A DNA stretch of 64,000 nucleotides from Hyphomicrobiales bacterium (GTDB taxonomy: Bacteria > Pseudomonadota > Alphaproteobacteria > Rhizobiales > Rhizobiaceae). Location: positions 186,001-250,000 of the forward strand of contig UCNE01000013.1 of the NCBI GenBank assembly GCA_900473685.1, written 5' to 3'. The position numbers and the translations under genes are program-made. Below are positions 53,872 through 54,898 of the stretch, piece by piece; the first letter of the stretch is position 1, and every line of letters starts with the position of its first letter. The notes beneath the pieces are model-generated. The model saw nothing but the letters and a program-made list of their open reading frames with translations. It ran no database searches and was not told the DNA's origin.

Positions 53872-54114
53872 TCAGTGCGCCTGCAGCTTGGCCTCTTGCG
53901 CGGCGGCAATAAACACCTCTCGCGCCTCTTCCGGCGACTTGCGGCCATCGATGGCGGCACGGCAGAAGCTTCTTGCAGCAACGTAGCGCGGACCACGAAG
54001 ATCCGGCCAGGTGTCCATCAGGCAGATGAGGGCATCGAACGGTCCGAAAACGATCTTCGAACCCTTATGCTCGAACCCGACTTCCACGGGGTTGGACCAT
54101 TTGGCATTTGGCAT
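53872..54114 (-). CDS. DUF982 protein
   Basis: This 80-residue protein matches the rhizobial DUF982 family: WSNPVEVGFEHKGSKIVFGP, DALICLMDTWPDLRGPRYVA and ARSFCRAAIDGRKSPEEARE. Function is unknown; the family is expanded in Rhizobiaceae. GGAGGAG precedes ATG 54114. It starts 78 bases downstream of the NfeR1-like small RNA on the same strand, so read-through could make the RNA its leader. Confidence 0.85.
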   Translation of the reverse strand: MPNAKWSNPVEVGFEHKGSKIVFGPFDALICLMDTWPDLRGPRYVAARSFCRAAIDGRKSPEEAREVFIAAAQEAKLQAH

Positions 54115-54191
54115 GAGCGTCTCCTCCGAATGTCTTGCCAGACCATAACGGCAGGATAACCGATTTGGTTCCCGTTGGGCAGAGTGCAAAA

Positions 54192-54306
54192 CGAAAAAAG
54201 CCTGCCGCGGGAGGAGGTGCGGCAGGCTTCTGAAAATGACCCACGGCCGGGAGGAGGTGGCCGCTGATCGATCGCAGCTCTTCGGGAGGAGGTGAATCAC
54301 TGCGAT
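54192..54306 (-). ncRNA. Anti-Shine-Dalgarno small RNA of the alpha-r14 (NfeR1) type
   Basis: On the minus strand three consecutive stem-loops each expose ACCTCCTCCC: stem 1 ATCGCAG/CTGCGAT (54271-54306), stem 2 CGGCC/GGCCG (about 54243-54265), stem 3 GCCTGCCGC/GCGGCAGGC followed by TTTTTT (54194-54222), which is also the terminator. The loops complement GGAGG ribosome sites. This is the architecture of the rhizobial alpha-r14 family, including NfeR1 of Sinorhizobium meliloti. It probably blocks translation of many transporter mRNAs, perhaps with Hfq. A promoter with matching spacing lies directly upstream. Confidence 0.88.
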
Positions 54307-54312
54307 AGACAC

Positions 54313-54341
54313 ACAATAATGCTGCAGCGCATCAAAATCAA
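54313..54341 (-). promoter_or_regulatory. Sigma-70-type promoter of the small RNA
   Basis: On the minus strand TTGATT (54336-54341) and TATTGT (54313-54318) are separated by 17 bases. Transcription should start about seven bases on, near 54306, which agrees with the first stem. Confidence 0.7.
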
Positions 54342-54614: not shown

Positions 54615-54898
54615 CTCGCGCTCCTTCTCGGTTCGGTGGGAAAACACCCGAACCGCAGGATTGTTCCAGTGCGCCAAAGACGGATTCGCCCCCCCTTGCG
54701 AACGCATCGCTTCTGACGGCATCCAGCCTCGCCAGGCAGCAGTGTCCCATTCCGGCACGAAATAAAGCATTCCCTAAAAAACCACTGTCGCGATTTCTTC
54801 ATGTGTGGCATGCTAATAGATGAGGTGCCTCATAAAAACCAATTTCGGAGTAGCTACTGCAGCCCAGAATCAAAAAATAAAGAGACGGGAGAAACCAC

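What the first reader, a model, noticed from the sequence alone, without database searches (positions are those of the whole stretch)
54192..54341. Anti-Shine-Dalgarno small RNA (alpha-r14/NfeR1 type) with three CCUCCUCCC loops
Seen on the minus strand: three stem-loops in a row, each exposing ACCTCCTCCC, the last one being the terminator, and a -35/-10 pair with 17-base spacing just upstream. Known: alpha-r14 RNAs such as NfeR1 use this motif to block ribosome sites and affect osmoadaptation and nodulation. Inference: this is the local orthologue. It precedes a DUF982 gene with a GGAGGAG site, so a cis effect or read-through is also possible.
Basis: partly seen in the sequence, partly recalled or inferred. 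Interest (0 to 1): 0.72.

Follow-up and report, generated by a model that had tools for sequence, protein, structure and literature searches.

The report
Known anti-Shine-Dalgarno small RNA, paralogue copy
This is an extra copy of a known rhizobial small RNA that carries three identical ribosome-site-blocking loops; it is not the well-studied nodulation copy itself, and its own switch-on sequence looks different.

Summary
Minus strand 54310-54193 folds into three hairpins with ACCUCCUCCC unpaired in each loop, the last being the terminator, behind TTGATT-N17-TATTGT. It is a full-length Rfam ar14 (RF02344) match, 95.2 bits against a gathering score of 58.8, and the stems covary (14 of 33 pairs with changes on both sides). 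So it is an alpha-r14 ('cuckoo') anti-Shine-Dalgarno sRNA.

It is not the NfeR1 orthologue. The genome holds four ar14 matches. The tandem pair on contig C24 shares NfeR1's neighbours in S. meliloti: tig, DUF1127, trmFO. The window copy is a separate paralogue, just upstream of a DUF982 gene in 15 of 19 genomes of its genus. Its class has a palindrome (TGC-N3-GCA) between -35 and -10 in 17 of 18 copies, against 0 of 23 tig-type copies.

Read-through into DUF982 is not needed: that gene has its own conserved GGAAC-type (EcfG-like) element after the terminator, and persists where the sRNA has decayed. Most likely action: trans blocking of G-rich ribosome sites, largely of transport and metabolic mRNAs. 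Expression is untested here.

The parts
54193..54310 (-). ar14 sRNA (118 nt), three hairpins
   Evidence: Rfam RF02344 95.2 bits, model 1-123; covariation
54336..54341 (-). -35 TTGATT
   Evidence: sequence; aligned region in orthologues
54313..54318 (-). -10 TATTGT, 17-nt spacer
   Evidence: sequence, alignment
54320..54334 (-). palindrome TGATGC-GCT-GCAGCA inside the -35/-10 spacer, candidate operator
   Evidence: core TGC-N3-GCA-RYA in 17 of 18 DUF982-linked copies, 0 of 23 tig-type copies; in 15 of 17 orthologous loci
54271..54306 (-). hairpin 1, loop motif 54284-54292
   Evidence: fold
54238..54269 (-). hairpin 2, loop motif 54249-54257
   Evidence: fold
54196..54231 (-). hairpin 3, loop motif 54209-54217, intrinsic terminator
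   Evidence: fold, T-run at 54199-54194
54147..54172 (-). GGAAC-N17-CGTT, EcfG (general stress sigma) type promoter-like element of the DUF982 gene
   Evidence: GGAAC at this place in 17 of 17 orthologues read by script, CGTT ending in 8 of 17; consensus from PMC3892343; not enriched genome-wide
54121..54127 (-). SD GGAGGAG of the DUF982 gene, complementary to the loops
   Evidence: sequence; duplex -14.1 kcal/mol
53872..54114 (-). DUF982 protein, 80 aa
   Evidence: PF06169 76.3 bits
54366..54614 (-). small upstream gene, no Pfam or NCBIfam match, with its own GGAAC-N16-TGTT at 54667-54643
   Evidence: GGAAC...GTT element in 17 of 17 orthologues

Best explanation
A stand-alone, trans-acting anti-Shine-Dalgarno sRNA of the alpha-r14 family, paralogous to NfeR1. 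It is transcribed on the minus strand from a sigma-70-type promoter (start about 54310-54306) and ends at the third hairpin. Shown: sequence, structure, covariation, family match, promoter-like boxes, conservation, distinct locus. Inferred: it is transcribed; each loop pairs with G-rich ribosome-binding sites and blocks translation, as shown experimentally for NfeR1; its targets are largely transport and metabolic mRNAs, and possibly the neighbouring DUF982 mRNA in trans; it answers to a signal other than that of NfeR1, through the palindrome in its promoter spacer.
For: Rfam RF02344 95.2 bits, E 3.6e-16. Fold z -6.6 with all loops unpaired. In 20 sequences 97.6% of cells paired, 14 of 33 pairs changed on both sides, 0 of 500 shuffles. 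ar14 over cut-off just upstream of DUF982, same strand, in 15 of 19 same-genus genomes and in 17 of 18 named-genome loci with a close DUF982 orthologue. All three loops are exact in 15 of 17 orthologous same-genus loci that keep the DUF982 gene and in 16 of 18 named loci. GGGAGGAG-N4-9-ATG occurs 24 times in this genome against 4 for the reversed pattern; of the 20 proteins scanned from these places 8 are transport components (five substrate-binding proteins, two ABC ATPases, one MFS). NfeR1 silences ntrB and two transporter mRNAs through these loops (PMC10746234).
Against: No transcript data. In S. meliloti only one of six copies was reliably seen on Northern blots in the conditions tested (PMC7143759 passage), so an individual paralogue may be silent. 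The target list rests on SD complementarity alone, with no functional background. The locus tolerates decay: loops lost in G011, G015 and L091 (possibly one lineage twice sampled), two of three exact loops lost in L083. The 18 DUF982-linked copies used for the alignment were picked by having three exact motifs, so loop invariance in that alignment is no independent evidence.
Confidence: 0.82

Rival explanations
1. It is the local orthologue of NfeR1, carrying out the nitrogen-stress, osmoadaptation and nodulation role.
For: Same Rfam family and loops; sigma-70-type promoter with a 17-nt spacer in both.
Against: S. meliloti SmrC14/NfeR1 lies between SMc02051 and tig, and in CP090106.1 an ar14 pair lies between tig and DUF1127/trmFO; in this genome tig, DUF1127 and a trmFO-type gene flank the C24 pair. 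Identity to the S. meliloti second copy: own second C24 copy 82.4%, window 63.0%. Tree split 97/99. GGTGCYATT, upstream of 10 of 10 second tig-type copies and of the S. meliloti second copy, is absent from 18 of 18 DUF982-linked copies.
Confidence: 0.05
2. Cis element: a leader or attenuator of DUF982, controlling it by read-through of the terminator or by pairing of the loops with GGAGGAG in the same transcript.
For: Same strand, 78 nt between the sRNA and the ATG, linkage in 15 of 19 genomes; SD complementarity strong (-14.1 kcal/mol; 2 of 85 background ORFs as strong).
Against: Strong terminator hairpin with a T-run; conserved GGAAC element between the two (17 of 17), which would give a leader without the sRNA; G011 and G015 keep DUF982, the element and the SD though the loops are gone; no DUF982 in the 1.5-2 kb flanks of 5 other-genus and 4 plasmid copies of the same promoter class.
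Confidence: 0.07
3. A silent or decaying duplicate: structure inherited, little or no function.
For: Family is multi-copy, 3-9 matches at E <= 0.001 per same-genus genome; loops lost in G011, G015 and L091, two of three lost in L083, no ar14 here in G012 and G018.
Against: Stems kept by compensatory change; three exact loops in 15 of 17 and 16 of 18 loci; promoter palindrome in 15 of 17.
Confidence: 0.12
4. Part of a coding sequence, an N-terminal extension of DUF982.
For: The DUF982 frame is open through the whole ar14 in 10 of 15 orthologues with intact ar14.
Against: Stops in the other 5 of 15, indels between orthologues, RNA covariation.
Confidence: 0.01

Closest known systems
NfeR1 / SmrC14 / SmelC397 of Sinorhizobium meliloti (alpha-r14, RF02344)
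   Same: about 120 nt, three hairpins each with CCUCCUCCC in the loop, terminal hairpin as terminator, sigma-70-type promoter
   Different: other locus (tig versus DUF982), RNA 63.0% identical to the S. meliloti NfeR1-type copy, no TGCA-N6-GCAT box upstream, palindrome in the promoter spacer instead
SmelA075 / SmelA099 (pSymA 'cuckoo' RNAs with three / four hairpins; PMC3927594 section 2.7)
   Same: loops; a three-hairpin copy on an S. meliloti plasmid pA (L128, perhaps SmelA075, identity not proven) has the same spacer palindrome
   Different: none of the 4 plasmid copies read has DUF982 in its 2 kb flanks; four-hairpin copies of this genus carry the palindrome about 28 nt further upstream in 10 of 14, and the own C17 copy lacks it
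CcsR1-4 of Rhodobacter sphaeroides
   Same: stress-linked RNAs; the Rhodobacter relative RS0680a has two loops with anti-SD motifs (PMC3927594; that RS0680a is CcsR is recalled)
   Different: processed from the 3' UTR of ccaF1, a DUF1127 gene (PMC8625941 passages); here a stand-alone unit with its own promoter-like boxes
AbcR1/AbcR2 (alpha-r15)
   Same: trans RNAs with anti-SD motifs acting on transporter mRNAs
   Different: other family, Hfq-binding, two CU-rich motifs (PMC7143759 passage)

Membership tests
alpha-r14 (RF02344) | full-length covariance-model match over the gathering score | tested here: met
   95.2 bits against 58.8, positions 1-123
alpha-r14 (RF02344) | three hairpins, each with CCUCCUCCC unpaired, stems variable but paired | tested here: met
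alpha-r14 (RF02344) | independent transcript with sigma-70-type promoter and intrinsic terminator | tested here: inconclusive
   boxes and terminator present by eye, not listed by the consensus scan; transcription not testable
alpha-r14 (RF02344) | Hfq independence and loop-dependent silencing of mRNAs | not testable with these tools
   reported for NfeR1 (PMC10746234)
NfeR1 orthologue group | genomic place by tig, DUF1127 and trmFO | tested here: not met
   the C24 tandem pair has it; the window copy lies by DUF982 and dusA
NfeR1 orthologue group | LsrB-type box TGCA-N6-GCAT upstream | tested here: not met
   0 of 18 DUF982-linked copies; but also 0 of 10 second tig-type copies here (present in S. 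meliloti L132, and in 5 of 14 four-hairpin copies), so weak as a criterion
[quoted passage not shown]
   upstream small gene has no Pfam match; own promoter-like boxes

The most novel reading that the evidence does not exclude
The alpha-r14 paralogues fall into two regulatory wirings: NfeR1-type copies by tig, and a second class marked by a TGC-N3-GCA palindrome, set either inside the -35/-10 spacer (window copy) or about 28 nt further upstream (many four-hairpin copies). One unidentified regulator would so direct the same anti-SD loops to a different stress, with the position of its site deciding repression or activation. In this genus such a copy is lodged between two genes with general-stress-type promoter elements, one of which (DUF982) carries a strongly matching ribosome site.
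Probability: 0.3. Interest if true: 0.5.

Novelty: new member of a known kind. Interest (0 to 1): 0.3.

Why it matters
The loops are nearly the same in all copies, so what distinguishes the paralogues is probably when they are made. A promoter element that separates the copies gives a simple, testable handle on why these rhizobia keep several copies (3-9 matches per genome) of one ribosome-site blocker. Otherwise the finding is an ordinary, now properly placed, member of a described family.

Tried and rejected
NfeR1 orthology: rejected by synteny, identity and tree. Read-through or leader of DUF982: disfavoured. Coding extension: rejected. 'Each ar14 copy sits by a gene with a strongly complementary SD': suggested by a transporter-like gene beside the C17 copy (-17.0 kcal/mol; its name AapJ-like is recalled, no family scan run) and by DUF982, but the flanks of 33 loci showed no such rule by eye, apart from single cases such as a predicted ORF in L027 (-19.0); no formal test. 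Genome-wide enrichment of GGAAC-N16/17-CGTT: not found, 119 sites against 143 for the reversed pattern, so the EcfG reading rests on conservation at this place only. A loop-anchored, ungapped covariation count over 60 copies gave mixed results because the loop register differs between classes, and next to no signal among the DUF982-linked copies alone; replaced by an alignment of 20. DUF982-ar14 linkage outside the genus: the S. meliloti dusA / FAA-hydrolase / gamma-carbonic-anhydrase locus has a DUF982 reading frame (two tblastn pieces, on the other strand relative to dusA than here) and no ar14; none found in the 1.5-2 kb flanks of 5 other-genus and 4 plasmid copies of the same promoter class. 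Of the 10 genomes (of 121) hit by the spacer-class pattern, 6 (own included) are ar14 over the gathering score and 4 are not. The upstream-position pattern hit 19 of 121, but at least two of these (own genome, G087) only through the second loop of a spacer-class copy, and none was checked against Rfam. Papers not held and seen only as citations: del Val 2012, Reinkensmeier and Giegerich 2015 (look-up failed), Robledo 2017.

Full report
What is there. On the minus strand, 54341-54193 holds TTGATT-N17-TATTGT, then a 118-nt stretch with three hairpins; each loop is ACCUCCUCCC, and the last hairpin is a G+C-rich stem followed by six T. These are the only three CCTCCTCCC in 64 kb; 2 of 100 shuffles reach three anywhere in the window, but not, as here, within 84 bases and each in a hairpin loop (fold z -6.6, 0 of 200 shuffles as stable; the clustering itself was not put to a shuffle test). 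cmscan at gathering level gives one match in the whole window, RF02344 ar14, 54310-54193(-), 95.2 bits, full length. On 20 aligned sequences (18 DUF982-linked copies and two further three-hairpin copies; A2) the RNAalifold structure has 14 of 33 pairs with changes on both sides; 97.6% of cells pair, 0 of 500 shuffles reach this, and slid structures fall to 31-52%. The structure was derived from the same alignment, which favours it over the slid versions, and the copies are related.

Which copy it is. The genome has four ar14 matches: a tandem pair on C24 (122 and 109 bits), one on C17 (105 bits; a fourth CCTCCTCCC lies 5' of it), and the window copy on C18 (95 bits). SmrC14, later NfeR1, of S. 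meliloti lies between SMc02051 and tig (PMC2780559 Table 1, passage; PMC7143759 passage). In the S. meliloti record CP090106.1 two ar14 copies in tandem lie between tig and DUF1127-DUF1127-trmFO. The second has published NfeR1 promoter marks, CTATAT and TGCA-N6-GCAT, though not an exact CTTAGAC. In this genome tig is at C24:93039-93488(-), the pair at 96015 and 96307(+), then DUF1127 and a GIDA-family gene, taken as trmFO by place. The own second copy is closest to the S. meliloti second copy (82.4%; own first copy 78.3%; window copy 63.0%). So the C24 pair, and its second member in particular, is the NfeR1 orthologue. A tree of 43 of the 60 distinct copies held (four-hairpin and three far copies left out) puts the DUF982-linked copies and two relatives on one side and the tig-type copies on the other, 97/99; only 4 of 40 inner branches are strongly supported, the bootstrap had not settled, and the DUF982-linked copies alone are not shown to be a clade. 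'Tig-type' in the other genomes means likeness to the C24 pair; tig itself was looked for only in the own genome and seen in CP090106.1.

Neighbourhood. The window copy lies between a small gene without family match and DUF982, followed by dusA; on the other side are an FAA hydrolase, a hexapeptide protein (gamma-carbonic-anhydrase-like, below the curated cut-off), a Fur-family protein (best NCBIfam match Zur, below the cut-off) and a ZnuB-type permease. The ar14-DUF982 pair is present in 15 of 19 same-genus genomes (the rest are G011, G012, G015, G018) and in 17 of 18 named-genome loci with a close DUF982 orthologue (L091 lacks it; L083 passes Rfam at 81.0 bits with only one exact loop motif). 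Names such as Rhizobium giardinii, R. herbae, Pararhizobium polonicum and Rhizobium sp. Root1334 suggest that the window lies in or near Pararhizobium.

Independence of DUF982. Between the terminator and the ATG lies GGAACCAAATCGGTTATCCTGCCGTT; GGAAC is present there in 17 of 17 orthologues read by script (G012 not read), with CGTT at N16-17 in 8 of 17 and other endings in 9. GGAAC-N16-CGTT is the EcfG1 motif of R. etli (PMC3892343 passage), and its -10 is known to vary (PMC7083833 passages). The small upstream gene has a like element (GGAAC-N15-18-NGTT) in 17 of 17. The pattern is not enriched genome-wide (119 against 143 reversed), so this reading is inference from conservation. In G011 and G015 the sRNA loops are gone, yet DUF982, the GGAAC element and GGAGGAG stay. 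The sRNA is therefore not needed as a leader of DUF982.

Targets. The loop pairs with the DUF982 ribosome site at -14.1 kcal/mol; 2 of 85 crude background ORFs are as strong. Stronger sites (GGGAGGAG-N4-9-ATG) occur 24 times against 4 for the reversed pattern. I scanned 20 proteins from 20 of these 24 places; left out were two short frames (L106, L120), L122 (a start inside what looks like an ABC ATPase frame) and L110, where my script had picked the neighbour already counted as L109, so its own gene was not examined. The 20 are five substrate-binding proteins, two ABC ATPases, one MFS transporter, seven enzymes (two acyl-CoA dehydrogenases, UxaC, a DHDPS-type, a TPP enzyme, an epimerase, a molybdopterin-binding one), three regulators, one proton-translocating subunit and one without match. 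This resembles the NfeR1 target list, mostly ABC transport (PMC10746234 introduction), but no background frequency was measured. Any paralogue with the same loops would share these targets, so timing of expression should make the difference (inference).

Promoter classes. Within 130 nt upstream of the first loop, TGC-N3-GCA-RYA is found in 17 of 18 DUF982-linked copies, 2 of 2 relatives and 4 of 4 plasmid copies (R. gallicum, Phyllobacterium, Sinorhizobium BG8, S. meliloti pA), at -39 to -42 (one relative also at -69); in 10 of 14 four-hairpin copies, at -67 to -69 and in at least one at -89, but not in the own C17 copy; and in 0 of 23 tig-type copies (three far copies dropped) and neither of the two S. 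meliloti tig-linked copies. At -40 it falls between -35 and -10. Conversely GGTGCYATT is found in 10 of 10 second tig-type copies and none of the other classes. In 121 family genomes the spacer arrangement is hit in 10 and the upstream one in 19, with 0 and 3 hits for the reversed patterns; of the 10, 6 are ar14 over the gathering score; the 19 were not checked and include at least two spacer-class copies caught through their second loop. S. meliloti SmelA075, a three-hairpin pSymA copy, is strongly detected after a shift to 40 C (PMC2873474 passages), whereas NfeR1 is reported for poor nitrogen and salt shock; that L128 is SmelA075 is a guess. Copies within a class are related, so these counts are not independent events. 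I saw no mention of this palindrome in what I read of PMC10746234 (introduction, two result sections, passages); its Fig. S1 and the subscription papers were not seen.

Verdict. A true alpha-r14 sRNA, correctly spotted, wrongly called an NfeR1 orthologue; the cis idea is unlikely. DUF982 together with sRNA returns no paper in the library held, and DUF982 alone returns one, from 2005, seen in the listing only. Interest is low to moderate, mainly for the promoter classes. On re-checking, confidence in the main reading went from 0.85 to 0.82 and the silent-duplicate rival from 0.10 to 0.12, because L083 has lost two of its three exact loops.

Noticed in passing
G011 (L055) and G015 (L056), orthologous loci; L083, L091: The sRNA has decayed in G011 and G015 (no CCTCCTCCC loops) but a terminator-like stem remains; G015 also keeps the promoter palindrome. 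L091 has no loop motif and L083 only one.
   Followed up: partly
own genome, contig C22:249984-260549: Ten GGAAC-N16/17-CGTT sites in 10.6 kb, far above the genome average; perhaps a general-stress gene cluster.
   Followed up: no
L129, L132 (CP090106.1): A 3.7-Mb S. meliloti record labelled 'pSymB' carries tig, trmFO, dusA and a DUF982 reading frame; it looks like the chromosome under a plasmid label.
   Followed up: no
own genome C17:244501-244644 (L074): An ar14 copy with four loop motifs. In several four-hairpin copies the last hairpin looks the same as hairpin 3 of the window copy (e.g. L066 in the listing; L003/L074 also matches 35 of 35 bases), suggesting exchange or loss of whole hairpin modules.
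   Followed up: partly
L126 (Phyllobacterium zundukense plasmid): An ar14 copy about 0.8 kb from repA of the plasmid partition genes.
   Followed up: no
L132 and L073: In S. meliloti CP090106.1 and in the own genome the same tRNA gene lies beside tig near the tandem ar14 pair, which strengthens the synteny.
   Followed up: yes
window 54643-54667 and 54147-54172: EcfG-type promoter-like elements before both genes that flank the sRNA.
   Followed up: yes
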